NCBI RefSeq assembly: GCF_900141765.1
Contig: NZ_FSRK01000001.1
Span: forward strand, 2,170,001-2,234,000
Origin: Epilithonimonas zeae
GTDB lineage: Bacteria; Bacteroidota; Bacteroidia; Flavobacteriales; Weeksellaceae
Direction of reading: 5' to 3'
DNA: 64,000 nt
Shown: positions 19,069-44,461 of the stretch, in pieces
Position numbering within the stretch: position 1 is the first letter of the stretch
How the letters are laid out: each line of letters starts with the position of its first letter
The notes under the pieces: model-generated
What the model was told of the DNA's origin: nothing
The model's input: the letters and a program-made list of their open reading frames with translations, nothing else
Database searches by the model: none
Translations under genes and position numbers: made by a program

Positions 19069-19083
19069 TGTCAAATAAAGTAA
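19069..19083 (+). repeat. Predicted fibre-side terminus of the Mu-like element
   Basis: TGTCAAATAAAGTAA begins the element. A related copy, TGTCAAAAGATGTAA, lies inverted at 19193-19207 and matches at 12 of 15 positions. The opposite end carries TGTCAAAT as an inverted copy. These are candidate transposase-binding sites. The adjoining host bases are ATTAG. Confidence 0.45.
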
Positions 19084-19383
19084 CAACCATATTTCCTTTA
19101 AAGTATTAGCTTTTCGCTGATATAGATTTTTATCTTTACCATAATTAAGTCCTGTGAATTATCACAATGTCCTCAATTGAAGCTTTTCATATTTACATCT
19201 TTTGACAATATTGAAAACCATCAATAGTCTTTAGTCCACATCAGGAAGTTTCTATGATATATAAACATTCAGAAAGCAGTGGATTGATATACTAGTTTGT
19301 TTGCCACCAGCACAATCTTATAATACTAAAATCCTAATTACATAATCTTGAGGGAGTAAAATTATTATTTGTTTCTGGATGTT

Positions 19384-20664
19384 CTATGATAAAGTTTGTA
19401 TATCAGTTAGTGTTTCATTCATTACTTCGACGGTCCATCTATAATTTTTACAAAGCACATATAACATCTCCATTGGAGATTCTGGCTTTCCATTATCTAC
19501 TCCAAGGTTGAATCCAACTAAAGGAGCTTGAAATATACCAGAAGGTCTATCATTAGCACCTGCGTAAAAATTTACCCAAGATATTAGCCAATTAACTTTT
19601 CTAAGAAGCCCTTCTATTGTTGACGAGTTTGATATTATAGCCTTAGCAACAACAATGTTATAAAAGTTAGTTACTAATGTATCCATCCTTGTTTGATTTC
19701 CTTTATATGCGCTTCTATAGTCGATTGTTTTTAAAGCAGGGCATAGCTCTATTCCCGTAGGTGGTGTTAAAGGTAAAAGTTGACCAGATGCAGCAAACAC
19801 AATTGATAATTGATTCAAATTCATACCACCGATTCCAACCCCCCAAGACGTCAGAGCTCCATTACCCATACCATTTGTCCAATTTACTTGATGTCTATAA
19901 CCAAAAGACAAATGTGTTATTTGTTTCATATCATTTATTTCTTGAGATATATTTTGAACTGGATTAGCAGCAAAAGCTAAAGTCCTTAAAGTAGAAATAT
20001 CTTTAAAATTAGATGGTATTGAAGAGGTATTAATTGAACAACTTCCTAATGACAAATTAGTTATACCTTTTATTCTAATAATTTTATCCAAATTATTATT
20101 TAGCTTATTTGACAAATTAAGTCCAGATAATGCTAATTGAAAAATCCTTGAGTTAGTTATCCAAGTTGGAATAAAACTAATAGAATTAGGTGTTATCGAA
20201 TTAAGGTTAAGCGTTTGAAAGTACCCACCTCCCAACCCAGTTGGGAACTCTTCAAAATATACTGATGAAATACTAACAGCACTAGAAAATCTATAAAACA
20301 ATAAATTCTCTGGAAATTTCCCGATTAATCTTTGTCTAGAAATTGTTATAGAATATATATTATTAGGATTAGAAAACCACATTTTTACAGTTCTTTTAGC
20401 AGCACCTGCGGGATAAGTATATGTGGGAATAGATGTATTTGTGGTAAAATTATATGATGCTATTGCGCTACCATCACCGTAATCAAAATTAACCGTATTA
20501 TTAGTACCTGGCTTAGATGATAATTGAAATACAGGACTAGCCATCCCTTGGATAGGAGGAAAAACACTTTGATTATGATCAAATTCTATAACAGGTAAAT
20601 CTGGGGATTTTAAAACTTCTCCAGATGTATTTGTCATAATGTTTCCATAAAGATCTTTTAACAT
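19384..20664 (-). CDS. Leucine-rich-repeat-like tail-associated protein (likely receptor-binding)
   Basis: The 426-residue protein is the last gene of the late tail operon. It begins VIEFDHNQSVFPPIQGMASPVFQL, then a PKD/YDG-like section (FDYGDGSAIASYNFTTNTSIPTYTYP). A long repeat-like stretch follows (INTSSIPSNFKDISTLRTLAFAANPVQNIS), typical of BspA-like or irregular LRR folds. The gene lies 2 bases after the third fibre gene. In tails this position holds receptor-binding or fibre-assembly proteins. A surface-binding role is inference from position and fold; no enzyme motif is visible. Confidence 0.55.
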   Translation of the reverse strand: MLKDLYGNIMTNTSGEVLKSPDLPVIEFDHNQSVFPPIQGMASPVFQLSSKPGTNNTVNFDYGDGSAIASYNFTTNTSIPTYTYPAGAAKRTVKMWFSNPNNIYSITISRQRLIGKFPENLLFYRFSSAVSISSVYFEEFPTGLGGGYFQTLNLNSITPNSISFIPTWITNSRIFQLALSGLNLSNKLNNNLDKIIRIKGITNLSLGSCSINTSSIPSNFKDISTLRTLAFAANPVQNISQEINDMKQITHLSFGYRHQVNWTNGMGNGALTSWGVGIGGMNLNQLSIVFAASGQLLPLTPPTGIELCPALKTIDYRSAYKGNQTRMDTLVTNFYNIVVAKAIISNSSTIEGLLRKVNWLISWVNFYAGANDRPSGIFQAPLVGFNLGVDNGKPESPMEMLYVLCKNYRWTVEVMNETLTDIQTLS

Positions 20665-20666
20665 AA

Positions 20667-22181
20667 TTATTCCGTTATAACTGTTGTTGCTTGATAAAAA
20701 TGCCAGTGTAAACCAACTTTTTTAAAAAAACCATTTAAATTTTGAGCTTGAACTTCATCCGTTCCAAATGCTTCTAGTTCATTATATGGAGGTATTGATG
20801 ATAGAATACTAATACTGCTATAACTTTTTGCATTATTCTCAGTTATATTACCTAAAGTATCTTTACCAATAACTTTACTAATGGGATTTGTCGTAACAGA
20901 CACTCGAGATAATGATCCATTATTATTAATCTGAGCTAAACCAATTCCTGTTCCTGAAACCTTATCCAATTTATTGGATAACGCAGTATTCATAGCCGCT
21001 GTAGTGACGTATCCTAATGCTGCAATTTGTGTTTTTGTATAGTAATTGTTATTCATATAAGCCGTGACATCCATCTGAACAGAGTCGCCATCTTTACTCA
21101 ACAATGGAATATAAAAATAATCCAACGTCGGTAAACTTACAATATCAATTGGTTTCGTAATTTTGCCCGCAATCTCATCATTCTTTTCGGCAGATAAGCC
21201 TAATGGGAAACCAGAGGTAGAATCTCCCTGCAAGGTTCTGTCTATAACAATATCAGAAACATTTCCTCCTAGTTTGATTACATCTAAACAATCAAGCGAA
21301 TGATCATATTTCACCAAGACATGCTCCTTGGATTTTATTGTAAATGGCTGAGAAAATCCTTTTATTAATCTTCTGCTGAGATTTGCTGAAATTTCTATTG
21401 AAGAAATCGAATTATTAAAAATCAGAAACTCTAAGTCCCTCGTAGTTTCTTCTACAAACTGAATTCCTGCCAAATAAGTTGTCCCATTTAATACTTTTGA
21501 TCCAGGGGTTAAATAAAAATTTTGCCTCTTATCTGTATATTGGATATTAAATATCGAGCCACTTATATAGGTAATTTTTTTCCAATTGTCTTCTGCCTTG
21601 TCTTTAAAACCATTCAATGTTTCAGGATCAACAACAGGTCCTTCTGGGGTCAGCAAAATTAATCTTACATGCAGTTCTCCAGGAGCAAGCGCGGGCTCCT
21701 GAGGATCATCTCCTTCGTTACCTTCTTTTAGAAAAAATAAACCAGGTTCATTTCTTGCAACAATACGAAGGAACTTATTGCCACCAGAAACTGGCATAAA
21801 TGACAAAGTTGTAGGAAAATTATTTGTTAAGATTTGACCATTGATTCTGACTTTGTTAATTCCAAATTCTGCGTTAACTCCGATAGTAACATTTCCACTG
21901 TTAATGGAAATATTTCCGATAGAGAGAACTTCATTGGAATTGACTGTGAAAGGAAGTTGAGATTCTGGAATCAAACCATTGACCAAATCTGCCTTTTTTG
22001 ATAATGCTATTGATAAACCATCAATCCCACTCATAGGTATCGGTGAACTCTTATGATAATAACTGTTCAGCAAGCCGTGAAACTGAGATTGTGTAGGCTT
22101 GGCACCTGTCACAAACCAACTTTTAAGTCTTGAAAGTTCTACTACTTCCAATTCCATAGGTATATTAGTGTTGTTTGCCAT
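20667..22181 (-). CDS. Tail fibre protein, paralogue 3
   Basis: The 504-residue protein shares its first ~55 residues with the two upstream genes (VVELSRLKSWFVTGAKPTQS, then QFHGLLNSYYHKSSPIPMSG). This module is the likely baseplate-anchoring part. Beyond it the sequence diverges completely: a beta-rich central part with SFMPVSGGNKFLRIVARNEPG, and a C-terminal part with VQMDVTAYMNNNYYTKTQIAALGYVTTAAMNTALSNKLD, a motif common in fibres of Bacteroidetes phages. The shared head and different bodies suggest separate receptor specificities. No dedicated chaperone gene is recognisable. Confidence 0.7.
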   Translation of the reverse strand: MANNTNIPMELEVVELSRLKSWFVTGAKPTQSQFHGLLNSYYHKSSPIPMSGIDGLSIALSKKADLVNGLIPESQLPFTVNSNEVLSIGNISINSGNVTIGVNAEFGINKVRINGQILTNNFPTTLSFMPVSGGNKFLRIVARNEPGLFFLKEGNEGDDPQEPALAPGELHVRLILLTPEGPVVDPETLNGFKDKAEDNWKKITYISGSIFNIQYTDKRQNFYLTPGSKVLNGTTYLAGIQFVEETTRDLEFLIFNNSISSIEISANLSRRLIKGFSQPFTIKSKEHVLVKYDHSLDCLDVIKLGGNVSDIVIDRTLQGDSTSGFPLGLSAEKNDEIAGKITKPIDIVSLPTLDYFYIPLLSKDGDSVQMDVTAYMNNNYYTKTQIAALGYVTTAAMNTALSNKLDKVSGTGIGLAQINNNGSLSRVSVTTNPISKVIGKDTLGNITENNAKSYSSISILSSIPPYNELEAFGTDEVQAQNLNGFFKKVGLHWHFYQATTVITE

Positions 22182-22298
22182 TTATTTTTGGTTTTATATG
22201 TTAAATCCATTTGTGGTGGATATTTAAATTTTATGTATCTAGTGAATTATTTAAGTGTTCTTTACTAAGAAACCAAATTTTTGAAATGATATAAAGTT

Positions 22299-23924
22299 TT
22301 AATTTAATTTGTATGCCTTTATAATATTCCAAGACAATTGTTTATTTGAAACCCCAGACGAGTGTGATATCAACTGAGTTACAAATGAATAATCTTCATT
22401 ATTACTTATAATAGTAGTAGACGTTTTACCCTCACCTGTAATTTTCAAAACATTGCCCTGTTTTAAAATAACAATAGTAGAATCTACAGTTGTAGAATAA
22501 CCAGTGGTCATTTTAAACTGATTGTTATTTAGAGTAAAATTATACGCTACAACCGTTCCTCCCGCATAGTAAAGAAATGATTGCCCATAATACACTAAGC
22601 CTAATGGAAGTAAATTATTCGCAGTTGAATTATACATTACCCCAAAAGTATTTTTTAATGTACTATTATATCCTCTCATACCGGCATCTGTCGAAATAGC
22701 ATCCGTCAATTGGATTTCAACATACCAGTCTTCACCAGCTAGAAACGCCGGAGAAGATTTCATCGAAATAAAAGTAGATAAACTGGGAACCGAAGAAACA
22801 TTTTCTTGTTTTATAATACCCGTTACGCCAGCACCTACAGATAATGTATTACTATAATTAGAATTAGTAAGGATGTTCCAACTTAAACCAGATAAATCTT
22901 TGCGCGATAATCCAACTAAAACTTGAAGAGACATTTCAGAAGTAGTATTTGCCACTCCACTCCACACTTTTATTTTATATTCACCTTCTCCTAATTCGTA
23001 GATATTTTTAGTAAAGGTTAATTCAGTTGGAGAAATCACAGTTATTTTATCTCCTTCAACTGTGAGTAAAACATTATAATTTAAATCTAAAATCTCAACT
23101 TTTCTACTAACCTGGGATAAATTCAAATTTGCTCCTGTAATAATAAATGTAGTATCATAATTTTCCAGAGGCATTACTGAAGGGTATATTGCACCAATAG
23201 ACATGGCTTCTTGCGATGCGTTATCATTCAATATTCTTACAAATTCTAACCTCTGAGCATTCGTCCAACTGTTTGCTGTATCTTTAAAAGCTGAAAATCC
23301 AACTTTTGCTATTTGTCCATCAGAGTTCTTCCCTAAGAAATCTGTGAATAGACTATCATCACTTTTATTTGGTAATTCTGTAATGGAATATGGTTCTCCA
23401 TTAGTATTCCACACCCAAGTATCACCTTCACTTTGGGTTTGGACATAACTGCCATTTGTCGTATTATTAGAATTAGTTACGTTTTTTCCAAAATCATCTA
23501 TTGCAACCGCTCTTCCGTCTATCCCTAAAACATAAGTCCCCCTTTTTCCATTATCCGGATTATCAACTTTTTTATAAGCATTACCATTTTGTGTAAACCC
23601 ATTCTCATCTACATAATCTATGGTCGCGATATTAGCTGGTAACTCTCCAACATTAAGAGCATCTTTCCAAGCTTGTGTATTGATGTTGGATGCATCTACT
23701 TTTGCATAGTACTGCAATTGTGAAGCATCTGCTTTGTTACCCAACACTGTAGACAGACCACTAATACCACTCATTGGTATTTGCGAACTCTTATGATAAT
23801 AGCTGCTCAGCAAGCCGTGGAACTGAGATTGCGTAGGTTTTGCGCCTGTTACAAACCAGCTCTTAAGTCTCGAAAGCTCTACTACTTCCGATTCCATAGG
23901 TGTATTATTGTTGTCAAGTGCCAT
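22299..23924 (-). CDS. Tail fibre protein, paralogue 2 with IPT/TIG-like domain
   Basis: The 541-residue protein shares about the first 240 residues with paralogue 1, including QAWKDALNVGELPANIATID and TYVLGIDGRAVAIDDFGKNV. It then has an Ig-like IPT/TIG section (IGAIYPSVMPLENYDTTFII, then TGANLNLSQVSRKVEIL) and a divergent C-terminal domain. IPT/TIG domains are typical spacers in surface-binding proteins. The gene is separated by 117 bases from paralogue 3 and 67 from paralogue 1, so each may have its own ribosome entry. The anchor is conserved and the tip variable. Confidence 0.7.
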   Translation of the reverse strand: MALDNNNTPMESEVVELSRLKSWFVTGAKPTQSQFHGLLSSYYHKSSQIPMSGISGLSTVLGNKADASQLQYYAKVDASNINTQAWKDALNVGELPANIATIDYVDENGFTQNGNAYKKVDNPDNGKRGTYVLGIDGRAVAIDDFGKNVTNSNNTTNGSYVQTQSEGDTWVWNTNGEPYSITELPNKSDDSLFTDFLGKNSDGQIAKVGFSAFKDTANSWTNAQRLEFVRILNDNASQEAMSIGAIYPSVMPLENYDTTFIITGANLNLSQVSRKVEILDLNYNVLLTVEGDKITVISPTELTFTKNIYELGEGEYKIKVWSGVANTTSEMSLQVLVGLSRKDLSGLSWNILTNSNYSNTLSVGAGVTGIIKQENVSSVPSLSTFISMKSSPAFLAGEDWYVEIQLTDAISTDAGMRGYNSTLKNTFGVMYNSTANNLLPLGLVYYGQSFLYYAGGTVVAYNFTLNNNQFKMTTGYSTTVDSTIVILKQGNVLKITGEGKTSTTIISNNEDYSFVTQLISHSSGVSNKQLSWNIIKAYKLN

Positions 23925-23991
23925 GTTTTGTTTTTAAATGACTAGTAATTTTAAATTAATAGAATTCTTAGTCACTGTTATTAAATATTTA

Positions 23992-25638
23992 TTATATAAT
24001 TTTAAATGCCTTAGTTATAATTAATGTTGGAGCTTCTGCCTGATTTGGGCTTTCTGTATTATTACTTCCTATACCTTTTAATTGTGCCGATAAAGCATAC
24101 CCTGAATTGTTAGATATAGTAATGAAACCCACTTGAGAACCATCAGTAATAGTAAGCAAGTTGCCTAATTTAGTAATACTTAAAACTATTGTTTTAGAAA
24201 TGGTACTCTGACCCGAATAATCAGTATTCCCCGTATTAGGATTAATGTTGGTTGACAATGTACCTCCAGCCCAAGTTTTTAAATATCTCCAAAAATGAAT
24301 AGGTATAAAAGATAAAGAATTTTGTACGTTAGAATAACATACACCTATTCTTAAAATTTCTACCGCCGTGTAGACTCCAATGCTACTGTCTATAGGTATA
24401 GCACCTGTTGTAACTTGTAATTCTACATACCAGTCATCACCTTGATCAAACATTTTTGAAGATAGAAAAGATATTACTGGCGTTGCCGTTACTTGATTTA
24501 CTTTATTTTCAATCATATTAACCTGTGCGCCTGCTCCTGTACTCATATCATTTGTAATATAGGTACTATCAACCAACTTGTTCCAAGTAATTGAAGAAAT
24601 ATCGATATTCTCTACTGAGGAAACTATCTTAAATTGTAAAGAAGTCGTTAATATTTTTGCACCACTTTTAAGCCTCAATTTATAGTCTCCTATGGATAGA
24701 GCATTATAGTTATAATAGAAAACCAAAGATAATCCATCAGCATATAAACTAATTTGAGAATTGGGTACAGTTGCTAGAACTACATTATCCGAGGCTCTTA
24801 ATATTTCTATAGACATAGAATCTGCATTAAGATACAAATTAGCCCCTCTCAAAACCAGGTACACATCATTGTCTTCTCTCTCAAACAAAGGAGGCGAAAT
24901 AGTATTTACCGACATCATACCTGCACTTCCTGCTCCCCCATTGAGTATCTGACCAAATTCCAATGCTTCTGCCTGAGACCAAGTTAGAGCAGTGGCTTTA
25001 AATGCTTGAAATCCTATTTTCCCGAATTGTCCTGCTGTATTCTTTCCTACAAAATCTGTGAATAAAGTATCATTTGATTTATCCGGCAAATTTTTCAAAA
25101 ACCAAGGATTACCGTTCGTTTCCCAAGTCCAGGAGTCTCCATCACTTTGGGTTTGGACATAACTGCCATCTGTTGTATTATCGGAATTAGTTACGTTTTT
25201 TCCAAAATCATCTATTGCAACCGCTCTTCCATCTATCCCTAAAACATAAGTTCCCCTTTCTCCATTATCCGGATTATCTACTTTTTTATAGGCATTACCA
25301 TTATGAGTAAACCCATTTTCATCTACATAATCTATAGTTCCTACATTGGGCGGCAACTCTCCAACATTAAGAGCATCTTTCCAAGCTTGAGCATTGATAT
25401 TAGACGCATCTGTTTTTGCATAATATTGCAATTGTGAAGCATCTGCTTTGTTACCCAACACTGTAGACAGACCACTAATACCACTCATTGGTATTTGTGA
25501 ACTCTTATGATAATAGCTGTTCAGCAAGCCGTGGAATTGAGATTGCGTAGGCTTTGCACCTGTCACAAACCAACTTTTAAGTGTTGTAAGAGGAATTATT
25601 ATTAATTGATCGGGATTATTACCAGTATCTAGTGCCAT
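23992..25638 (-). CDS. Tail fibre protein, paralogue 1 with IPT/TIG-like domain
   Basis: At 548 residues this is the first of three fibre genes. Its N-terminus differs slightly from the others (DNPDQ region: LIIIPLTTLKSWFVTGAKPT) but then matches paralogue 2 up to about residue 240. An Ig-like section follows (NTISPPLFEREDNDVYLVL, RGANLYLNADSMSIEIL) and a unique C-terminal domain. DNA identity with paralogue 2 is high enough over several hundred bases for recombination. Receptor binding is inferred from position directly after the collar-type fibre gene. Confidence 0.7.
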   Translation of the reverse strand: MALDTGNNPDQLIIIPLTTLKSWFVTGAKPTQSQFHGLLNSYYHKSSQIPMSGISGLSTVLGNKADASQLQYYAKTDASNINAQAWKDALNVGELPPNVGTIDYVDENGFTHNGNAYKKVDNPDNGERGTYVLGIDGRAVAIDDFGKNVTNSDNTTDGSYVQTQSDGDSWTWETNGNPWFLKNLPDKSNDTLFTDFVGKNTAGQFGKIGFQAFKATALTWSQAEALEFGQILNGGAGSAGMMSVNTISPPLFEREDNDVYLVLRGANLYLNADSMSIEILRASDNVVLATVPNSQISLYADGLSLVFYYNYNALSIGDYKLRLKSGAKILTTSLQFKIVSSVENIDISSITWNKLVDSTYITNDMSTGAGAQVNMIENKVNQVTATPVISFLSSKMFDQGDDWYVELQVTTGAIPIDSSIGVYTAVEILRIGVCYSNVQNSLSFIPIHFWRYLKTWAGGTLSTNINPNTGNTDYSGQSTISKTIVLSITKLGNLLTITDGSQVGFITISNNSGYALSAQLKGIGSNNTESPNQAEAPTLIITKAFKII

Positions 25639-25648
25639 AATTGTTATT

Positions 25649-26527
25649 TTAGTTTGTCGGACCGATATATTCTATAAATCTAACTACCCTGTAAGGTTGT
25701 AAGTTATTATGTGGTAGACCGCTACCTTCTTCAGTTGTGTATGATGTTCCGGCTGTACCATTTACTGCTATGGGAGTATTGGAACTACCTGTCCCTCTTG
25801 TGTACGAACCATATAAAAATCTATGGCTGTGTCTTGGCATTTCATCTTTTGATAATATATGAGTTCTTTCTCCACCTTCTACTTTGTAATTATCAATAGA
25901 ACCGAAATCACTATCGTTTGGCAACCAACCTACAGGTACACGTCCTTTTAAATCTGTACATTCTTGCCAATCCTTAGGAATAGCAACTGTTGAAGGCTTA
26001 TTCCAGATAGCAATCATGCCAATTGGTATTGCAGATGGTTTAATTTCTAATGCTGCAACTTTTGCCTCAAGACTAGCGATTCTCGCTTCGTGATTAGAAA
26101 GACTTGTGCTGTGATTAGCAATACTATTATCATGGCTTAGTTTAAAAGCCTCAATTTCTGTTGTCTTAAAAATTCTTTTAAAACGTGACCAAGCATAAGT
26201 ATCTTCTGGGCCTGCTGTTCCAAATCTTACTTGCCTTTTGTAAATAACATCTCTTTGTTCTGCATCCTGGAAAGTTGCTTTAACAGGTTCTACAGTAATA
26301 ATAACCGTATCTGATAAATTACCTGCCTGAAACGGTAATAGTTCACCATTTAAAAATACTGTACCATCTGTAACTGAAGATCCATTAACCTGACATCCAG
26401 AAATAATAGCAAAATCACCAGCCAAATTTCCTAATTGATTAAAAAGATTATATGAAGTTTGTAAGGCGTCTAGAATATTAGTAGAGAGTGGAAAACCACC
26501 TGTTTGATTAAAATTGATATAATTCAT
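25649..26527 (-). CDS. Phage tail collar-domain fibre protein
   Basis: The 292-residue protein has an N-terminal baseplate-facing part, a trimeric coiled coil near residues 135-165 (SNHEARIASLEAKVAALE), and a C-terminal collar/MdpB-like domain. The marks of the latter are GMIAIWNKPSTVAIPKDWQECTD, LKGRVPVGW, and H-rich EMPRHSHRF, ending in NLQPYRVVRFIEYIG. These domains form short tail fibres. The gene overlaps the gpI-like gene by 4 bases, placing it in the baseplate-fibre operon, and precedes the three large fibre paralogues. Confidence 0.75.
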   Translation of the reverse strand: MNYINFNQTGGFPLSTNILDALQTSYNLFNQLGNLAGDFAIISGCQVNGSSVTDGTVFLNGELLPFQAGNLSDTVIITVEPVKATFQDAEQRDVIYKRQVRFGTAGPEDTYAWSRFKRIFKTTEIEAFKLSHDNSIANHSTSLSNHEARIASLEAKVAALEIKPSAIPIGMIAIWNKPSTVAIPKDWQECTDLKGRVPVGWLPNDSDFGSIDNYKVEGGERTHILSKDEMPRHSHRFLYGSYTRGTGSSNTPIAVNGTAGTSYTTEEGSGLPHNNLQPYRVVRFIEYIGPTN

Positions 26528-27877: not shown

Positions 27878-27878
27878 T

Positions 27879-28698: not shown

Positions 28699-28700
28699 TA

Positions 28701-36567: not shown

Positions 36568-36615
36568 GCGTTTCAAAGGTTTCATACAAATTGTAGAGAA
36601 ACGAATTTTGTGTCA

Positions 36616-36906
36616 ATGAAAGACTTTTTATTTACAGACGATTTAGTTATTAAAAATGGTGATTTTGCTGTTGATTATTCCGACAACCAACATCAGAAAC
36701 ACATTTTAGTAGCTTACAAGGGAGAATACAAGCAATCACCTGAACTAGGTGTGGGCATAGAGCAAATGTTAAAAGACGATGACATTACTCCGGTATTGAT
36801 TGAAGCGAAGAAAAACCTTCAGTATGATGGTGTGGATGTGAAGAACATCTATTTCACAGATGAGGGAAGGTTGGTTATTGATGGGAATTACAAAAAAAAT
36901 AATTAA
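36616..36906 (+). CDS. Baseplate wedge protein, gpW / gp25-like (Mu gp46)
   Basis: The 96-residue protein starts at ATG 36616 (MKDFLFTDDLVIKNGDF); a GTG two codons earlier is possible. Segments QHQKHILVAYKGEYKQSPELGVGIEQML and IEAKKNLQYDGVDVKNIYF match small gp46/gpW-like baseplate proteins of Bacteroidetes Mu-like elements. In P2 and Mu this gene lies next to gpJ. Here it is about 9 kb away and on the opposite strand, a striking rearrangement. Confidence 0.65.
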   Translation: MKDFLFTDDLVIKNGDFAVDYSDNQHQKHILVAYKGEYKQSPELGVGIEQMLKDDDITPVLIEAKKNLQYDGVDVKNIYFTDEGRLVIDGNYKKNN

Positions 36907-36919
36907 CAAGATAGAAATT

Positions 36920-37405
36920 ATGACACCTAGAAAAGAATTATTTTTAGCAGTAAAAGATGCACTAAACGGCATTGAGGGAATAGAGTATGTTGACATTTTT
37001 CGAAAACAGTTTAATTATCCAAATGAGACGGTATTAAATTATTGGACTTCTGCGCTTATCAGATTTCGTTCTATTGAATATGAAACTATGACAGAACAAT
37101 TTCTGGAAGGAGAAGTAAAATTGGATGTGATTCTATATTGTAAAGAAGGATGGATCGAGCAATATAATAATGAACTTATGGAAATTGATTTATTGGATGC
37201 TATTGCAGAAAAGTTGCAGTTTTTAAAAGGTATTCAATTTAAACCAATCCAATTATTGAGAGAAGGTATTGAAGATGAGTCTTGGGATAACACCGAAATA
37301 AAACTTACAGAGTCGGTTGTTGCGTATCATCAATTATTCAGTACAACTATTTATCATCAATTAAAACAGAGATATCAGTATCAGAGTTTAAAGAATATTA
37401 ATTAA
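36920..37405 (+). CDS. Putative tail terminator-like protein
   Basis: This 161-residue protein (ATG at 36920, MTPRKELFLAVKDAL) follows the gpW-like gene by 13 bases. It is mixed alpha/beta with IDLLDAIAEKLQFLKGIQ and SVVAYHQLFSTTIYHQL. The size and style fit tail terminator or completion proteins, which cap the tube and sheath at the head-facing end. I do not recognise the family for certain. A terminator is kept in headless tailocins because the tail needs a cap. Confidence 0.4.
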   Translation: MTPRKELFLAVKDALNGIEGIEYVDIFRKQFNYPNETVLNYWTSALIRFRSIEYETMTEQFLEGEVKLDVILYCKEGWIEQYNNELMEIDLLDAIAEKLQFLKGIQFKPIQLLREGIEDESWDNTEIKLTESVVAYHQLFSTTIYHQLKQRYQYQSLKNIN

Positions 37406-37408
37406 TAA

Positions 37409-37443
37409 TAAAAAAGACCAAAATAATTTATATTTTGGTCTTT
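37409..37443. terminator. Bidirectional terminator between the late plus block and the early operon
   Basis: AAAAAGACCAAAATA pairs with TATTTTGGTCTTTTT over 15 bases around ATTTA. It ends the plus-strand block and the convergent early operon. Confidence 0.9.
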
Positions 37444-37452
37444 TTGTTAAGA

Positions 37453-37641
37453 TTAAGTTTCGGAAGAATAGATACCTGTACCTTTTATGATTGCTCTAAC
37501 TGTCCTTTCACTAATAAAAAAATGATCAGCTGTTTCTTTTTCTAGGGCACTAATCCTCCATTGTGGATTTTTTTTCTCCAACTCAGTAAAGAATGTTCTT
37601 ACTTTTACATTACGCTTTAAAAATCTATGATTATCAGACAT
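37453..37641 (-). CDS. Small HTH protein at the end of the early operon (candidate late activator)
   Basis: The 62-residue protein (MSDNHRFLKRNVKVRTFFTE) is basic and has a helix-turn-helix-like segment (ISALEKETADHFFISERTVRAIIKG). In Mu the activators of middle and late genes (Mor, C) lie at the end of the early region, the same place as here. It is much shorter than Mor or C, so the role is inference from position. It would act on the divergent promoter region around 36.3 kb. Confidence 0.5.
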   Translation of the reverse strand: MSDNHRFLKRNVKVRTFFTELEKKNPQWRISALEKETADHFFISERTVRAIIKGTGIYSSET

Positions 37642-37699
37642 TAATACAAAAATAAAAAGTTATTTTCTTTTTCACAAGTTGGGTTTTCATACTAACTCT

Positions 37700-37918
37700 T
37701 TAAACTAATTTTGGTTTAACATCAAACTCTTTTAGAGCAACGCTTTTTATTGTGTTCAAGCAATTGGCATCTTCATAATCCTTAAGCGCATATGTCTCGT
37801 AAAGAGGATAATCTCTAGCACTTGTGCTAATCTCCAAAGTCAAAATGGTATAGCCCTTTTTTTCTAATGCAGATTTGAGCTCATCAAGTGAGTACCAATA
37901 TGAATTAATTTTCATCAT
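37700..37918 (-). CDS. Hypothetical early protein
   Basis: A 72-residue protein (MMKINSYWYSLDELKSALEK) with an alpha/beta pattern, LKSALEKKGYTILTLEIS. No family recognised. It is read with the early operon, 33 bases before the small membrane peptide's stop in transcript order. Confidence 0.45.
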   Translation of the reverse strand: MMKINSYWYSLDELKSALEKKGYTILTLEISTSARDYPLYETYALKDYEDANCLNTIKSVALKEFDVKPKLV

Positions 37919-37951
37919 CTTTTTATTTGTTAGAATATAGCTGGTACAGTC

Positions 37952-38062
37952 TTACGGTTTTCTGATTGTTATATTGTAAACAATTATACCTACAGAAACT
38001 CCAAAGATGAAACAAACACCTGATATCAAAACAACTATATCTAATTGTGAATTTGTCATCAT
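37952..38062 (-). CDS. 36-residue membrane peptide coupled to the DUF3164 gene
   Basis: Starting at 38062, the minus strand encodes 36 residues (MMTNSQLDIVVLISGVCFIF and GVSVGIIVYNITIRKP) with one membrane helix and a basic C-terminus. Its ATG overlaps the DUF3164 stop codon as ATGA, a strong sign of translational coupling. Function unknown; candidates are an antiholin-like or superinfection peptide, but nothing shows it. Confidence 0.5.
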   Translation of the reverse strand: MMTNSQLDIVVLISGVCFIFGVSVGIIVYNITIRKP

Positions 38063-38724
38063 ATTGTAAATCTAAATTCCAATTTTCTTGGCACCGAATC
38101 TATCTCTATAAACTTCCAGCCACTGATATACATACTGTTTTGTCTTCTCTGTTGTGCATCAAAGATAATCTTCAGCCCTTCATCAAATCTTTTGTCATTA
38201 AACTGATCTTTTAATTTGGATAACTCAATAATCTTGGCTGGATTTAGCATTCCTGTTTTAAAATTAGGTTTCAGGAAAGTATTAACTGCAGCAGATAATT
38301 TCTTATTATTATCATCACCTGTTGATAAGGAGTTGATAAACTCTTTTATTTTCTCGACACCTTGGCTTTCTGTACCATCAAATCCTATAGTAACGTTGTA
38401 TCCAATGGTAATACTTGCACTGCCATCTTCTAATGTTGATGTATGGCTGTCTTGTTGATGTACTTTTGTACCATAAACAGAAGCTTTCAAAGCTTGTAGA
38501 GGTTTATAATCGTTCCATAGTTTTTTTATTAAACTATCCGTGATATTATGATGTAAAACCAAATCATCAATATTACTGTTTACAAACTCGGAAGAAAGTT
38601 CTTTATAAGTCTGTATATTCTTACTTCTGTTTTCTCTCTCTATTTTATCTAATTCTCTAGCATCCTGAATTATTTTTTTGCGTTCTTCTGCTGATAAAGA
38701 TTTGATATCAATTACTGTTTCCAT
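38059..38724 (-). CDS. DUF3164 phage protein
   Basis: The 221-residue protein fits DUF3164, an early protein of Mu-like phages with unknown role. Its N-terminus is a charged helix (SAEERKKIIQDARELDKIER), followed by KASVYGTKVHQQDSHTSTLEDGSASITIGYN and FDAQQRRQNSMYISGWKFIEI. Its presence marks the element as a genuine Mu-type relative. It overlaps the genes on both sides. Confidence 0.75.
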   Translation of the reverse strand: METVIDIKSLSAEERKKIIQDARELDKIERENRSKNIQTYKELSSEFVNSNIDDLVLHHNITDSLIKKLWNDYKPLQALKASVYGTKVHQQDSHTSTLEDGSASITIGYNVTIGFDGTESQGVEKIKEFINSLSTGDDNNKKLSAAVNTFLKPNFKTGMLNPAKIIELSKLKDQFNDKRFDEGLKIIFDAQQRRQNSMYISGWKFIEIDSVPRKLEFRFTI

Positions 38725-38872
38725 TTTGTATGTTTTTTAATTTTCTTTTTATTTTATATAAGTCTATCATTAATAAGTTTCTCTCTTCATTATCATCACA
38801 TTCTTCTATTTTGCTTTCCAGATTTACTACTGTTTCTTTCAACTCGGCTTCTATCTCAATATTCGGTTTCAT
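38708..38872 (-). CDS. Small coiled-coil early protein
   Basis: From ATG 38872 (MKPNIEIEAELKETVVNLES) this encodes 54 residues, mostly heptad-like helix with EERNLLMIDLYKIKRKLKNI. An upstream start at 38911 would overlap the previous gene more deeply. It overlaps both neighbours by 17 bases. Function unknown. Confidence 0.4.
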   Translation of the reverse strand: MKPNIEIEAELKETVVNLESKIEECDDNEERNLLMIDLYKIKRKLKNIQNGNSN

Positions 38873-39047
38873 TTTTATTGATGATTTTATGTTCTTTGAA
38901 AAAATAAGCATTCAATCTTGGGTCATATACATATTTACCAATTTTCTGTGATTGTTGTTTCTTTGCTATAGCTAGAGTATCTATTGCTCTATTCAGTTCT
39001 ATTTGTTTCTGTTCATTGGTTGTTAATTTTCTTCCGTCTTCACTCAT
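38856..39047 (-). CDS. Small hypothetical early protein
   Basis: A 63-residue protein (MSEDGRKLTTNEQKQIELNR) with a helical start and a basic end (KIGKYVYDPRLNAYFFKEHK). It lies 5 bases after the preceding early gene. No family recognised. Confidence 0.4.
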   Translation of the reverse strand: MSEDGRKLTTNEQKQIELNRAIDTLAIAKKQQSQKIGKYVYDPRLNAYFFKEHKIINKNETEY

Positions 39048-39052
39048 GTTAT

Positions 39053-39343
39053 TTATTTTAATTGATTTAATGCTTTTTCAATCTCGGGATTATATTTTTT
39101 ATAGTTTTCCAGAGGTTCCCATATTTCATTTTTTAAGAAATACTGTAATCTGTCATCTCCATATTTCATTGTTGGTGATTCCCAATTGTTTGTAAGAATC
39201 CACTCATAGATGTCAAAAATCTTAGAAGTGGTACTTTTTTCTTTTCCGGCAATGTAAATATGGATTGCTACTCGTTCCGCCCAATCCAGAACTTCAAAAA
39301 TGCTGTCTAGCTGTAATACTTTGAAAAGTACGTCTTTGTTCAT
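39053..39343 (-). CDS. Hypothetical early protein
   Basis: A 96-residue, mostly helical protein (MNKDVLFKVLQLDSIFEVLD, WAERVAIHIYIAGKEKS). It starts 15 bases after the ATPase gene. No family recognised; tight operon spacing supports it being real. Confidence 0.45.
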   Translation of the reverse strand: MNKDVLFKVLQLDSIFEVLDWAERVAIHIYIAGKEKSTTSKIFDIYEWILTNNWESPTMKYGDDRLQYFLKNEIWEPLENYKKYNPEIEKALNQLK

Positions 39344-39358
39344 GTTGTATTTGATATT

Positions 39359-39988
39359 TTAATTGTTTGTTGATTGTCCCCAGTATTTTATTGCACCTTC
39401 TTTCCATATGATATATCCTTTTTCCCATTCTGGTCCCAGATAACGTCCTTTTGAAAATGCTTTGAACCCTTCTACCCAGATTTTCAAGTCTGCGTCGTAT
39501 TGCACTCTGAGAGCTGTTTTCCCCATTGGCTTGCTACCATCCATCTGACTATTGAAAATGAAAAGCTTATTATGGTATTTTCTTTTTAGTAGGAGGTATC
39601 TTTCCCAGTTGAGGTCTGTATATTGCCAGCTGTCTATGATAATAATATCCGGGCTTTGTCTTTTATCCAATCTTATTTCAAGCTCCGATATACTTTCATT
39701 AATCAATTGAATTCTTCTGCCGCATTCTGCTACATTTTGTTGTTTCCAGGCTTCCTGCATTGTAAGAGAATTGCCTTCTTCCAAAGAATTATACAAGACT
39801 CGTCCGTATTTTGATAAAGCTTTTGCTAATTGTAACATAAAAGCCGTTTTACCATTACCCGAATTACCTGAAATAAACCATACCCCTCTAGACTCTGGGT
39901 GTTTAAAATTGTCGTACCAGCTGCCGTCCCATTTTATCAGATTATATTTTTTTGTAAGGATATCTGTTGATGATAATGCTTTTTTCAT
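39359..39988 (-). CDS. RecA-fold P-loop ATPase next to the MuB gene
   Basis: The 209-residue protein has a Walker A motif GNSGNGKT (residues 41-48) and a Walker B strand PDIIIIDSWQY (about 110-120), followed by a sensor-like FNSQMDGSKPMGKTALR segment. This is a RecA/DnaB-like core lacking other domains. It overlaps the MuB-like gene by 4 bases, so the two proteins are made together. It may help target-site choice, replication or unwinding. Classical Mu has no such second ATPase. Confidence 0.65.
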   Translation of the reverse strand: MKKALSSTDILTKKYNLIKWDGSWYDNFKHPESRGVWFISGNSGNGKTAFMLQLAKALSKYGRVLYNSLEEGNSLTMQEAWKQQNVAECGRRIQLINESISELEIRLDKRQSPDIIIIDSWQYTDLNWERYLLLKRKYHNKLFIFNSQMDGSKPMGKTALRVQYDADLKIWVEGFKAFSKGRYLGPEWEKGYIIWKEGAIKYWGQSTNN

Positions 39989-40935
39989 AATGGTGGAAGA
40001 TTTAAAACTTTTCTTACCAGGTTCTCTGTTAATGGTTCTCGCAGCCTATCTGCTTCTCGCATAGCCGGAACTAAAACATCATGCAACTCTCTATAACTTG
40101 TGCAATAATTCTGAAGAAATTTGACTAAGTCTTTATCTTGAAAACCGCCAACAAATTCTGAAAAATTGGTATCAATTGATTTCAAATATCTAATCCCGAA
40201 TTTGATTCGGCTATAAAATTGCGGCATCCCATCCTTATTTTTTTTCCTTAATTGTTCTAATTTTTTGATTAATTGATCGGTTCCAATTAGAATAAGCCCA
40301 CAGTGTTGATTTAGATGATCGTGTAGTTCTTTCATATTACAAAGTGTGGATTGTTTTAGATATTCTGCTTCATCAAAAATTAAAATAGGTTCATATCCTT
40401 CAAGTTTTAGACTCGTAAGCTTTTTGATGATATCCTTAATTCTTTTTGATTTACTTGTTCCTGATTGGATTTTTAATGATTCACAAATCTTATCTAACAA
40501 ATCAGAAATAGTATCCATAGATCCTACTGTTATTTTGAAGGCATCTTTGATATAGCTCTTCACAAAAAGATCAGACAAATAGCTCTTTCCACATCCGGTT
40601 TCTCCGATAATGATATTTGTATATCCGAATTCTTTAGCATCTTCCAAGACTCCTAAAATTTGATTAAACTGAGGTGTAACCTTTGTTCTCCAATATTCTT
40701 TTTCCATTTTAAAGCCTATGCTTTTTGCGATTTGTCGGTAATATTTGGGGTGTATCATCACTTTTTTATCTTCACCTGCCATCACAAAATCTTTCCCATT
40801 TCTTATTTGGCTGATATAATTTGAAGGAATATTGTAAGAATCGGAAAACTCATTGGCAGACATCTCATTTTTTTTCAAATAATCTTCAAGTTTTTCTGTT
40901 ATATTTAACTTTAAATCTTTATTCATTTTCTTCAT
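39985..40935 (-). CDS. MuB-like transposition ATPase
   Basis: The 316-residue protein has an N-terminal XRE-like helix-turn-helix (MSANEFSDSYNIPSNYISQIRNG), then an AAA+ core with Walker A IGETGCGKSY near residue 113, Walker B EPILIFDEAEYL, and a sensor segment LILIGTDQL. This is the MuB/TnsC-like layout. MuB binds target DNA and activates the transposase. It overlaps the MuA-like gene by 17 bases. An alternative start three codons downstream is possible. Confidence 0.85.
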   Translation of the reverse strand: MKKMNKDLKLNITEKLEDYLKKNEMSANEFSDSYNIPSNYISQIRNGKDFVMAGEDKKVMIHPKYYRQIAKSIGFKMEKEYWRTKVTPQFNQILGVLEDAKEFGYTNIIIGETGCGKSYLSDLFVKSYIKDAFKITVGSMDTISDLLDKICESLKIQSGTSKSKRIKDIIKKLTSLKLEGYEPILIFDEAEYLKQSTLCNMKELHDHLNQHCGLILIGTDQLIKKLEQLRKKNKDGMPQFYSRIKFGIRYLKSIDTNFSEFVGGFQDKDLVKFLQNYCTSYRELHDVLVPAMREADRLREPLTENLVRKVLNLPPL

Positions 40936-42973
40936 TAATGTATTTGTTGATATCTACTTTGTTAGACCAATAATCCTTTTGATCATTTTGCCACGTTTTG
41001 TCTTTTTTCTTTTCAATCACTTTATTTTGGGTTTCCAATTTTTTTCTGGCATTTAGTATTTTTTCTTCATTTAACCTGTTCTTATGTTGTCCCTTGCTGT
41101 CCATAATCAGCATTTTCGCTAATGTGTTGTCCAGATTAGGATTACTAATAAATAACTGATTAACTGTGTTGTAATCCTTAAGTTGATTTTCCAAAATGAA
41201 GTTTTTTGTGTTTCTGTTGAACTGGTTAATTTTATTTAATTCCTCAGTGTCTCCTTTTTTACGATCATACAAAGCCATAGGCTGTATATGTTTTTGTAAA
41301 AGAATAAAGTTTAAGTTTTGATCCTCATTGTACGCTAACACTTCACTTAAATCATTTGAGTCAAATTTGATTATCCAATCCAGATGAGAGTGCATTCTAA
41401 AATTGATATCAAAACTGTCATATTCTCTCTTTCTACCATTAATAGATATATGAAGACCATTGTGACTAACCTTATTTGTAAATCCTGTTGTCTCACCAAA
41501 ATGCATTAGATATTCCTTTTTGTTAAATAGCCTTTTTGCATTTTCAGGTAATCTGCCATATCCTTCTAAATATTTTTCTCTGAGTTTGTTTCTATCGGTT
41601 TCTATCATTTGGATTAGCTGTTTCTCACACTCATTTTGACTTGGAAATGAGTGACGTATTTTATTTAAATATTCGCCATTAGGTTGAGTTCTTGACTTTA
41701 TTCCTTGACCGCTCCAGTTTGGGGATAATTGACAATATGTTTTATTAAAATATTTAAACCAAGGTTCAATAACTTTCGACTTTGCATTACCCACTTTTGC
41801 AGGCGTAAATTTTTCTGAGACTATTTCATAAAAAGATGTCATTTCTTTTTTTGCGTAGTTATCTGCCTGTATTTGTAGAACTTTGTGTTTTTCTCCAAAT
41901 AGTTCTTCTGTGTGTTGTACGGCATTTCTCAAAGCTGCTTTTATTAATGTTGCATTTTCTTGTGTTCCAATTGCATAACCCACAGGATATTTGATAAAGG
42001 GATCTAGCACAACAACCATTGTTAATCTATTATGATATGTTGTAACAGACTGGCCTCTTAATCCATTTCCTGTCTTCTGATAAAGAAGTTCAGCATTCCA
42101 TCCATCGATAGTCCAATAAATAAGGGGCAGGGATGGTGTCTCTCGTTTTACCTGCATTGATATTTTGTTATCAAATCTTTTTTCACCGTTGGTTGCTGCA
42201 AAAGTTAAAAGACTCCATTTCGTTCTATAATTACCAATTGTACTCGCAGAAAGCTCTGCCCAATCTTGGATTTTGGCAACCGAATTATAAATAGTCACAA
42301 TCTGTTCATTATCTAAGTTCCTATGATCCCTAAGTAATTGTCTTAAAACAGCTTCTTGTTTATGATCTTTTATTTTAGCAGCTTTTTTATTTCCAAAATT
42401 TTCTGAAACCAAGCTTTTATAACCTTCAACCTTATAAACATCCAGTTTTTCTTTTAATCGTCTTATCGATTTTGGTAATGTATGTCCTATTTCATTTTTC
42501 ACATCTTCACTAGCTTTTGCTGCATCTTGCCAAACCATTGTTAACATTGCTTTCCCGCCTCTGCTTTTTCGGAATGTTATCATTTCTAAAATATAGATAT
42601 CCAAAGCATTTAACATTTGAGCATTTATTGAATATTCATCCTGTTTTTCTTTTGATAATGATTTATAATCATCTAATAAATAATTGGTAAAAAACTCTTG
42701 GGCATCATAATCATCTTTGTAATAATTAAAAATTTGATTTTTAACTTTAGGTTTACTCGGATAACCTATCTTTTTAATAATTTTTGTTCTGAATTTTTCT
42801 GGTATACTTTCGAATTCTATTAAAGCAGTATTATTCAAACCTTTTCCCATTCTCACCCGATTGAACTTATTCAAACGACAATGTTTATCATAATTAGACT
42901 TAGTCATAATATTCAAACCATCATACAAAGCACGTCCTGGTATTGTTAAAATATTATTATAGAATTGATACAT
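40919..42973 (-). CDS. MuA-like DDE transposase
   Basis: The 684-residue protein is a full-length Mu-type transposase. N-terminal DNA-binding helices (MYQFYNNILTIPGRALYDGL) come first, then a DDE catalytic core with D290 (YWTIDGWNAEL), D371 (LQIQADNYAKKE) and E403 (KSKVIEPWFKYFNKTYC), a beta-barrel region and a basic C-terminal tail that would contact MuB. All three catalytic acids are present and the frame is intact, so transposition may still be possible. It starts 16 bases after the small 42-residue ORF. Confidence 0.92.
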   Translation of the reverse strand: MYQFYNNILTIPGRALYDGLNIMTKSNYDKHCRLNKFNRVRMGKGLNNTALIEFESIPEKFRTKIIKKIGYPSKPKVKNQIFNYYKDDYDAQEFFTNYLLDDYKSLSKEKQDEYSINAQMLNALDIYILEMITFRKSRGGKAMLTMVWQDAAKASEDVKNEIGHTLPKSIRRLKEKLDVYKVEGYKSLVSENFGNKKAAKIKDHKQEAVLRQLLRDHRNLDNEQIVTIYNSVAKIQDWAELSASTIGNYRTKWSLLTFAATNGEKRFDNKISMQVKRETPSLPLIYWTIDGWNAELLYQKTGNGLRGQSVTTYHNRLTMVVVLDPFIKYPVGYAIGTQENATLIKAALRNAVQHTEELFGEKHKVLQIQADNYAKKEMTSFYEIVSEKFTPAKVGNAKSKVIEPWFKYFNKTYCQLSPNWSGQGIKSRTQPNGEYLNKIRHSFPSQNECEKQLIQMIETDRNKLREKYLEGYGRLPENAKRLFNKKEYLMHFGETTGFTNKVSHNGLHISINGRKREYDSFDINFRMHSHLDWIIKFDSNDLSEVLAYNEDQNLNFILLQKHIQPMALYDRKKGDTEELNKINQFNRNTKNFILENQLKDYNTVNQLFISNPNLDNTLAKMLIMDSKGQHKNRLNEEKILNARKKLETQNKVIEKKKDKTWQNDQKDYWSNKVDINKYINEENE

Positions 42974-42988
42974 AGTTAAGCGTTGATA

Positions 42989-43117
42989 TCATTTATAAAT
43001 TATTTTATAAGGCAGTCCAAAAAACAGAATGTATTTTGCTTGTTGCTTGTTACCCGTTTTTGGATCTATAACATCTATTTTTTTGTAACAAAAAAAATAA
43101 TGGATAAACTTTCTCAT
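42989..43117 (-). CDS. 42-residue ORF between the ner-like and transposase genes
   Basis: It starts at 43117, one base after the ner-like stop, and encodes MRKFIHYFFCYKKIDVIDPK followed by TGNKQQAKYILFFGLPYKII. It is basic and aromatic. Tight spacing favours a gene, but short length leaves doubt. No family recognised. Confidence 0.35.
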   Translation of the reverse strand: MRKFIHYFFCYKKIDVIDPKTGNKQQAKYILFFGLPYKIIYK

Positions 43118-43118
43118 G

Positions 43119-43325
43119 TCATTGTTTATTTATTTCGTTTTCTAAAGTTGTTCTCATTTTCAATTCGATAGCTTTATATTCTGCTTTTATTTTATCTGGA
43201 AAAATTCCTACTCTGTCTCCAGTAATGCATTGCCGTACATATCTAGGAGTTATTGCATACTTTTTGCCTATCTCATTCAGAACAGCAGTATTATACTTGT
43301 TCCTTTTTTGTGTAATTTTGTTCAT
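43119..43325 (-). CDS. Ner-like small HTH DNA-binding protein
   Basis: The 68-residue protein (MNKITQKRNKYNTAVLNEIGKK) has an HTH-like core with YAITPRYVRQCITGDRVG. It is divergent from the repressor and first in the early operon, the place of ner in Mu and cro in lambda. It probably limits early transcription by binding the intergenic operators. Confidence 0.6.
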   Translation of the reverse strand: MNKITQKRNKYNTAVLNEIGKKYAITPRYVRQCITGDRVGIFPDKIKAEYKAIELKMRTTLENEINKQ

Positions 43326-43334
43326 CTGTTCAAT

Positions 43335-43383
43335 TTGTTCCTATTGTGTGAACAAATATAAACACAATTTGTGAATATATTCA
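43335..43383. promoter_or_regulatory. Repressor/ner operator region with three inverted repeats
   Basis: Between the divergent repressor and ner-like genes lie TTGTTC-N9-GAACAA (43335-43355), CACAATTTGTG (43363-43373) and TGAATATATTCA (43372-43383). They share TTGTG/CACAA- and GAA-type half-sites. Three spaced palindromes are typical of a phage immunity operator. Confidence 0.6.
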
Positions 43384-43398
43384 AAAAAAATAAAAGAT

Positions 43399-44208
43399 AT
43401 GGAGTCTAAAATTGATAAAATACTAATACTCAATAAAATAAAATCACATTACGGTTTTAATACCGATGCCGATTTTGCACGATTTCTCGATATCAAACCT
43501 AATACTTTATCCAATTGGTACATTAGAAACACATTTGACCCAGAAAGAATATTCACAAAATGTGAAGATATAGATGGTAATTTCATTATATCTGGAGAAG
43601 AACCTATGTTGAAGGTAAATTCAGCTTTTGAAGCGAAGAAAGGAACTAATAAAAACAACCATTTACCTCAAGTCATTGTAGTAGACTCAAATAATGATGA
43701 AAACATCCCGCTAGTTCCTGTTAAAGCAAGAGCTGGATATCTAGACGGTTATTATAAACCAAAATTTATGCGAACATTACCTACATACAGAGTACCTGGA
43801 TTAAATAATGGCACATTTCGTATGTTTGAGAATAAAGGAAATTCTATGCACCCAACATTACCCAATAGAAGTATTGCAGTTGGAGAATGGGTGGAAAACT
43901 GGAAAGACGATATAAGAGATGGAAGAATATATATTATCGTTCATGACGACTGGGAAGAATCTGAAGACGGTGTTCTTATTAAAAGATGTTTAAATAGAAT
44001 TTCAAAATACAACAATTTACTCTGTAAGTCTGATAATATAGATAGAGTTAGTTACCCCAATATTAATCTTAATCCTATATATATAAAAGAAGTATGGGAG
44101 CTAAAAGGTGCTTTTACATTTGAATTTCCGGATCCATCTAATTTATTTAGTCGATTAGATGATCTTGAGGCAGAAATGGAACAACTTAAAAGAAACTTAC
44201 TCAAATAA
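43399..44208 (+). CDS. CI-type repressor with S24 self-cleavage domain
   Basis: The 269-residue protein has an N-terminal HTH (about 10-50, TDADFARFLDIKPNTLSNWY) and a C-terminal S24 peptidase with S149 (GNSMHP) and K195 (VLIKR). A112-G113 in KARAGYLDGY is the expected self-cleavage bond. It reads toward the element's own end, as Mu c does. It should keep the element silent and be inactivated by RecA-stimulated cleavage after DNA damage. A C-terminal coiled coil (LDDLEAEMEQLKRNL) is unusual. Confidence 0.85.
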   Translation: MESKIDKILILNKIKSHYGFNTDADFARFLDIKPNTLSNWYIRNTFDPERIFTKCEDIDGNFIISGEEPMLKVNSAFEAKKGTNKNNHLPQVIVVDSNNDENIPLVPVKARAGYLDGYYKPKFMRTLPTYRVPGLNNGTFRMFENKGNSMHPTLPNRSIAVGEWVENWKDDIRDGRIYIIVHDDWEESEDGVLIKRCLNRISKYNNLLCKSDNIDRVSYPNINLNPIYIKEVWELKGAFTFEFPDPSNLFSRLDDLEAEMEQLKRNLLK

Positions 44209-44461
44209 CATCATTTAACTAAAACTCAACTAATTAGTGAAGCACTATAAAAATAAATAGGGGGTTCAGTTTATAAATTTAGTACCATTTTGTTAATTAT
44301 ATAATCAGTATACGTATACTAGAATATATTATTTAAATTAATAAAAGTAAGTCTTAAGGTCTATCTAAAGGGATGCGTAAATCCATTATGCTATCAATTA
44401 TATCTCCGTGACAGATACATATAGAGTATTTGTTTTCTTTTGAACTCATAAAAATTTGACA
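44209..44461. repeat. Repressor-side end of the Mu-like element
   Basis: The last 8 bases, ATTTGACA (44454-44461), are the inverse of the TGTCAAAT at 19069. Flanking host DNA begins TTTAG, versus ATTAG on the other side, a possible 5-base target duplication with one mismatch. A perfect 14-base palindrome, AGTATACGTATACT, lies at 44307-44320. No gene is seen here. Confidence 0.45.

What the first reader, a model, noticed from the sequence alone, without database searches (positions are those of the whole stretch)
19069..44461. A Mu-type transposable element with a full contractile tail and lysis set but no head or packaging genes
Reading every open frame across the element shows sheath, tube, chaperone, tape measure, hub, gpV-, gpW-, gpJ- and gpI-like proteins, fibres, lysozyme, spanin and holin. 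It also shows an intact MuA (D290, D371, E403), MuB, DUF3164 and a cleavable repressor. No terminase, portal, gpF, head protease or capsid is visible, and the site between lysozyme and sheath where they normally lie is only the spanin gene. Known R-type tailocins are headless tails, but they usually lack transposition genes. This could be a transposable tailocin, or a deletion remnant.
Basis: partly seen in the sequence, partly recalled or inferred. Interest (0 to 1): 0.88.

Follow-up and report, generated by a model that had tools for sequence, protein, structure and literature searches.

The report
Jumping gene carrying a phage tail
A relative of phage Mu has shed its head genes but kept a contractile tail, lysis genes and its jumping machinery, and relatives in the same bacterial family seem to have done this about six separate times, which suggests a phage that turns into a mobile bacterial weapon.

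Summary
The element, about 18.69-44.54 kb, carries a contractile tail, lysis genes, a CI-type repressor, MuA with an intact DDE triad, MuB and DUF3164. No head or packaging gene was detected, even in a lax six-frame search.

Against the closest relative (G218, a complete Mu-type prophage) three separate stretches are missing: capsid/protease, terminase, and adaptor/neck/portal/gpF. The two tail genes lying among them, gpW and a tail-terminator-like protein, are kept. One deletion cannot do that.

It is not a lone remnant. Among 81 sheath loci from 320 genomes of the family, 17 are headless and fall in six groups nested among head-bearing phages (one placement weak). MuA was detected in 10 of the 17. 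In a seven-genome Chryseobacterium lineage MuA, MuB and tail genes are under purifying selection and lie in at least four settings. Headless elements carry 2-3 fibre genes in 14 of 15 cases; head-bearing ones one in 14 of 14.

Best reading: an R-type tailocin that is still a Mu-type transposable element. Mu-derived tailocins are known; I found none in print that keeps transposition genes. Killing and transposition are untested.

The parts
18689..44543 (.). whole element, best candidate termini (12-bp perfect inverted repeat, 4/5 target duplication)
   Evidence: bracketed by host homology
19384..20664 (-). LRR-like protein at the fibre end (LRR_14 E 0.013, below cut-off); relative in G218 at 57%
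20667..22181 (-). fibre gene sharing its first ~65 residues with the next two
22299..23924 (-). fibre gene
23992..25638 (-). fibre gene, 53% identical to its neighbour over 529 columns
25649..26527 (-). Gp10_C baseplate/fibre protein
26524..27000 (-). gpI-like (label not from a call; conserved in relatives)
26990..27877 (-). gpJ-like (phrog_38413, function unknown)
27879..28181 (-). LysM-like small tail protein (label from gene order)
28150..28698 (-). holin (PF05105)
28907..29389 (-). gpV-like (phrog_5275, function unknown)
29389..30360 (-). baseplate hub (phrog_4930)
30360..30983 (-). baseplate hub type protein (phrog_5233, DUF6046)
30983..32851 (-). tape measure protein
33052..33597 (-). 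tail chaperone by position (phrog_19076, function unknown)
33670..34089 (-). tail tube (phrog_4579; also hits the misnamed phrog_9206)
34092..35264 (-). tail sheath (DUF2586)
35242..35757 (-). probable spanin (weak)
35754..36257 (-). lysozyme/endolysin
36258..36609 (.). junction 1: 119-aa gene, capsid and protease of relatives absent here
36610..36906 (+). gpW-type baseplate protein
36907..36919 (.). junction 2: TerS and TerL of relatives absent here
36920..37405 (+). tail terminator/collar-like protein (phrog_6911)
37406..37452 (.). junction 3: adaptor, neck, portal and gpF of relatives absent; terminator-like hairpin at 37411-37445
37453..37641 (-). 62-aa protein kept in head-bearing relatives (weak HTH match, E 0.03)
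37700..37918 (-). 72-aa protein, 64-68% identical in four lineage-2 elements
38059..38724 (-). DUF3164 early protein
39359..39988 (-). ATPase (phrog_6891)
39985..40935 (-). MuB
40919..42973 (-). MuA transposase, D290 D371 E403
43119..43325 (-). Ner-position small protein, kept in relatives
43399..44208 (+). CI-type repressor

Best explanation
The element is an R-type tailocin carried by, and still organised as, a Mu-type transposable element. Shown by sequence: tail, baseplate, terminator and lysis genes plus MuA, MuB and a repressor, with no detectable head or packaging gene. Inferred: when the repressor is relieved, probably after DNA damage, the cell makes headless contractile tails capped by the retained terminator/collar protein and lyses through holin, lysozyme and spanin; the tails bind related bacteria through one of several fibres and kill them by puncturing the envelope. 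The element cannot package itself. It persists because sister cells that carry it benefit, and it moves by MuA/MuB transposition, entering new cells by routes other than its own particle (transformation, plasmids, other phages). Head loss freed it from phage constraints and favoured several fibres in place of one.
For: Three separate head-gene losses that spare gpW and the terminator gene. The terminator model resembles collar/cap proteins of pyocin R2, diffocin and monocin and the Mu and lambda terminators. A phrog_6911-type gene was found in five of the six headless groups, not in G213. Six nested headless groups. Median pairwise dN/dS in the seven-genome lineage: MuA 0.039, MuB 0.033, sheath 0.126, tube 0.089, terminator 0.117. 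At least four genomic settings among the seven. 2-3 fibre genes in 14 of 15 headless elements against 1 in 14 of 14 head-bearing. Window tail, lysis and terminator genes show no clear decay: 158 window-specific against 140 G218-specific changes over 13 genes. No related terminase anywhere in 12 headless genomes with two queries; the first query found one in 12 of 12 head-bearing control genomes.
Against: This exact element is known from one genome. Target duplication only 4 of 5 here, and none found in the four lineage-2 elements scanned. Over all 16 genes tested the window changed somewhat faster than G218 (247 against 195, p 0.015), with MuA 56 against 20, which may mean relaxed selection on MuA here, though a different MuA history would give it too. 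Three lineage-2 elements share a flank, so part of the spread is vertical. MuA was not detected in 7 of the 17 headless loci. G008 has only one fibre gene. No induction, killing or transposition data.
Confidence: 0.72

Rival explanations
1. A defective prophage: a Mu phage that lost its head genes by deletion and is decaying, with no function.
For: The exact element is seen in one genome only; the target duplication is imperfect; MuA changed faster than in G218.
Against: Three separate losses sparing interleaved tail genes; open frames kept; tail genes not clearly faster than in the head-bearing sister; the same outcome in other lineages under purifying selection.
Confidence: 0.12
2. A domesticated, no longer mobile tailocin in which MuA/MuB are kept for another reason, such as regulation or replication of the locus at induction.
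For: No target duplication found in lineage 2; G162 and G182 share both flanks and G067 one flank gene with G162; G213 and G216 lack a detected MuA.
Against: At least four settings among seven related elements; MuA and MuB strongly conserved; DDE residues kept in the window.
Confidence: 0.3
3. A satellite that supplies its own tail and takes heads from a helper phage.
For: Mobile element with a full tail; the terminator, which in a phage joins the neck, is kept.
Against: Adaptor and neck genes are lost; no related terminase in 12 headless genomes (control 99), which excludes a resident helper of that kind only; the terminator changed faster than in G218 (15 against 1), as if the head interface no longer mattered.
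Confidence: 0.06
4. An extracellular contractile injection system delivering effectors to eukaryotic cells.
For: Headless contractile tail in an environmental bacterial family; one headless group carries a patatin-like phospholipase beside the tail.
Against: Mu early genes, repressor, holin and lysozyme instead of an eCIS layout (eCIS markers themselves were not searched for).
Confidence: 0.04

Closest known systems
Mu-derived R-type tailocin of Pseudomonas syringae (Hockett 2015: paper not held; known here from a passage of the review PMC12090994, and from recall)
   Same: Contractile tail taken from a Mu-type phage, head absent.
   Different: That tailocin sits at a fixed locus without Mu transposition genes (recalled, not checked); here MuA, MuB, repressor and DUF3164 remain, and in one lineage the element lies in several settings.
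BceTMilo and R-type pyocins (passages of PMC5411513)
   Same: Contractile tail and lysis genes, no head; the pyocin R2 collar is among the fold matches of the terminator.
   Different: P2-like; BceTMilo carries a tyrosine integrase and lost the head genes next to the tail block.
G218-type Mu prophages and Elizabethkingia phage TCUEAP3
   Same: MuA 69% and 62.5% identical; same order of the main early genes.
   Different: They encode terminase, portal, protease and capsid; TCUEAP3 is not among the sheath matches.
Extracellular contractile injection systems
   Same: Headless contractile tail.
   Different: Mu early genes and phage lysis genes here; eCIS markers not searched for.

Membership tests
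R-type tailocin | contractile tail and baseplate genes | tested here: met
   some baseplate labels rest on gene order
R-type tailocin | no capsid, portal or terminase genes | tested here: met
   G218 as positive comparison
R-type tailocin | own lysis genes | tested here: met
   holin, endolysin; spanin weak
R-type tailocin | bactericidal headless particles | not testable with these tools
   needs induction, microscopy and spot tests
Mu-type transposable phage | MuA with DDE triad, and MuB | tested here: met
Mu-type transposable phage | TG..CA inverted ends with 5-bp target duplication | tested here: inconclusive
   12-bp inverted repeat, 4 of 5 duplication, control 1 of 300
Mu-type transposable phage | head and packaging genes | tested here: not met
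   derived from such a phage, not one itself
P. syringae type Mu-derived tailocin | transposition genes lost (recalled definition) | tested here: not met
   MuA and MuB present
eCIS | eCIS ATPase and effector genes in the cluster | not tested
   no dedicated search was made
tail-forming satellite | mobilised in helper heads | not testable with these tools
   no related terminase in 12 headless genomes (control 99)

The most novel reading that the evidence does not exclude
A standing class of 'tailocin transposons': Mu-type phages repeatedly shed the head (about six times in one bacterial family), keep the tail terminator as the cap, multiply their fibres, and go on as transposons whose cargo is a bacteriocin, spreading without ever packaging themselves. 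Some later lose MuA and become fixed tailocins, so living lineages show the steps from phage to domesticated weapon.
Probability: 0.5. Interest if true: 0.85.

Novelty: new variant of a known kind. Interest (0 to 1): 0.78.

Why it matters
How phages become tailocins is mostly inferred from fixed end points. Here head-bearing phages, headless elements that still carry a transposase, and headless elements with none detected lie in one tree, so the steps can be ordered and tested. It raises the question of why a transposase stays under selection in an element that cannot package itself. The link between head loss and several fibre genes is a simple, checkable sign of selection for killing range.

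Tried and rejected
Target duplications for lineage 2: none convincing for the four elements scanned at both ends; the right ends of G162 and G186 were looked at afterwards only in an alignment. Empty site of the window: not found. The catalase gene on the low side and the two-component genes on the high side are conserved in the genus, but not next to each other in the relatives fetched, so the site was rearranged. End motif from a phage with two copies in G199 (TATACCCC..GATTATA): a 4-bp duplication fits copy 2 and G218 but not copy 1; not carried over to the window. dN/dS of window against G218: no dS value for 10 of 20 genes (saturated) and high dS in most others, so unused. The Asp-to-Glu change at the second catalytic position of lineage-2 MuA was suspected to inactivate it and rejected: head-bearing phages of that MuA subfamily have Glu too (the G182 row there was a wrong ORF and was dropped; its MuA is). 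The PHROG name 'major head protein' for the tube was judged a misname. Padloc search of 8 small or unknown proteins: nothing. Pfam has no hit for the window MuA; PHROGs has. The Pfam sheath family PF04984 gave nothing in the own genome; the sheath belongs to DUF2586. Literature: ten searches; listings seen, passages read only in PMC5411513, PMC12090994 and PMC8705779. No listing named a headless element with Mu transposition genes, but only openly licensed papers are held.

Full report
What is there. The window lies on contig 1 of a 4.08-Mb genome. The window's own genus was not named by any tool. Between a catalase gene (16488-18638) and a response regulator (44900) lies one element of about 26 kb. 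Reading leftwards on the minus strand: MuA, MuB, an ATPase, small early genes, DUF3164, lysozyme, a probable spanin, sheath, tube, a chaperone-position gene, tape measure, two hub-type proteins, a gpV-like protein, holin, a LysM-like protein, gpJ- and gpI-like proteins, a Gp10_C protein, three fibre genes and an LRR-like protein. On the plus strand are the repressor and, in the middle, a divergent pair: gpW and a tail-terminator-like protein.

No head genes. The complete prophage G218, from the same genus, has a sheath 72% and a MuA 69% identical. It shows what is missing: on the minus strand a 119-aa gene, major capsid (phrog_267) and protease; on the plus strand TerS, TerL (phrog_38), head-tail adaptor, neck, portal (phrog_113) and a gpF-like head protein. 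HMMs grown from these families over the fetched loci find none of them in the window, and an unfiltered search of 477 stop-to-stop frames found nothing beyond noise.

Three losses, not one. In G218 the order is lysozyme, [119 aa, capsid, protease], gpW, [TerS, TerL], terminator, [adaptor, neck, portal, gpF], h62. In the window each bracket is gone and what lies between is kept. gpW ends at 36906 and the conserved terminator start (MTPRKELF) is at 36920; after the terminator gene comes a terminator-like hairpin (37411-37445) and then h62. I saw no remnant of the lost genes.

The retained gene of the head block is probably a tail cap. It belongs to phrog_6911, function unknown. An AlphaFold model from ten relatives is of moderate quality (mean pLDDT 69.9, pTM 0.60). 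Its best match in the PDB is a Salmonella protein of unknown function; next come a siphophage stopper-terminator complex, a cyanophage terminator, the Mu terminator, the monocin cap and T5 p142, and further down lambda gpU, the diffocin collar and the pyocin R2 collar (E 1e-4 to 2e-3, TM mostly 0.4-0.67). This is fold-level evidence. The same family lies divergently placed in lineage 2 and in G008, by HMM in G206, G216 and the G117 group, and in the head block of head-bearing G045. None was found in G213.

It recurs. The sheath found 69 of 320 family genomes, MuA 49 of 320. I fetched sequence at 81 sheath loci and scanned it. Nineteen had no terminase, portal or capsid hit; two of these (G246, G279b) are pieces under 5 kb and were set aside as undetermined, with G295 (4.4 kb, a capsid hit only). 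That leaves 17 headless (G150 on a 6.3-kb piece only) and 61 head-bearing. On a maximum-likelihood tree of sheath+tube the 17 fall in six groups: the window (sister to G218), seven genomes of the Chryseobacterium genus (support 100), G008 (sister to head-bearing G005a, 100), G206+G216 (84), G213 (weakly placed, 42), and G117/G078/G134/G171/G150 (100). I call the seven lineage 2. MuA was found in 10 of the 17: window, G008, the seven and G206. It was not detected in the fetched sequence of the other seven; G213 still has a repressor and a DUF3164 protein, and G216 a repressor-like protein.

Selection and movement. In lineage 2 the median pairwise dN/dS was 0.039 for MuA (13 of 21 pairs usable), 0.033 for MuB (six of seven genomes, 11 of 15 pairs), 0.126 sheath, 0.089 tube, 0.058 hub, 0.117 terminator, 0.039 lysozyme, 0.175 tape measure. 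Synonymous sites are near saturation, so these are rough. Flank proteins (the right flank of G067 was not reached) show G162 and G182 at one locus, G067 sharing one flank gene with G162, G016 and G075 sharing neighbours at opposite ends of the element, and G019 and G186 sharing nothing: at least four settings, with some vertical inheritance. No target duplication was found for this lineage. For the window, 13 tail, lysis and terminator genes show 158 changes unique to the window against 140 unique to G218; all 16 genes tested, early genes included, give 247 against 195 (p 0.015); holin and lysozyme dropped out for lack of outgroups. The terminator (15 against 1) and MuA (56 against 20) changed faster in the window, gpV (4 against 15) and the ATPase (4 against 16) slower. 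The terminator result fits loss of the head interface; the MuA result counts against a fully constrained transposase here, or reflects a different MuA history.

More fibres. An HMM of the fibre attachment domain finds three fibre genes in the window, two or three in the other headless elements counted except G008 (one long gene), and one in each head-bearing element counted: 14 of 15 against 0 of 14 with two or more (Fisher p 2e-7 by element, 4e-4 if six headless groups are set against the 14; neither corrects fully for relatedness). In G171 a third hit lies outside the tandem. G067 and G150 were not counted.

No helper in residence. G218 TerL found a match in 12 of 12 head-bearing control genomes, down to 25% identity, and in none of 12 headless genomes; a second TerL also found none there. 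This speaks against a resident helper of the same kind, not against unrelated phages.

Known or new. Tailocins derived from Mu are known from Pseudomonas syringae (review passage), and one with an integrase from Burkholderia (passages). A headless Mu-type element that keeps its transposition genes, arising repeatedly, was not met in ten searches of an openly licensed library. I file it as a new variant of a known kind. The killing particle and live transposition remain inference.

Noticed in passing
L195, L200, L204, L206 (genomes G117, G078, G134, G171): A headless tail cluster without detected MuA has, divergent from the sheath, a block with a patatin-like phospholipase (345 aa in G134, PF01734 E 6.8e-26) and a ~1217-aa protein without a Pfam hit.
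   Followed up: partly
L175-L178 (genome G199): Two copies of a TCUEAP3-like Mu phage in one genome point to ends TATACCCC..GATTATA; one copy shows a 4-bp target repeat, the other none.
   Followed up: partly
window 33670-34089; L101:1362-1778: PHROG 9206, named 'major head protein', is the best hit of the tail tube; the name looks wrong and would mislead head-gene searches.
   Followed up: partly
window 18640-19050 and 44461-44558: Host genes on the two sides are each conserved in the genus but not next to each other in the relatives fetched, so the site was rearranged.
   Followed up: partly
window 37700-37918: A 72-aa protein is 64-68% identical to that of four distant lineage-2 elements although their MuA and MuB are only 20-28% identical, hinting at exchange of this gene.
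   Followed up: no
L230 (genome G043): A MuA matching the lineage-2 profile strongly lies about 26 kb from the sheath of a head-bearing locus, so MuA types may be exchanged between phages.
   Followed up: no
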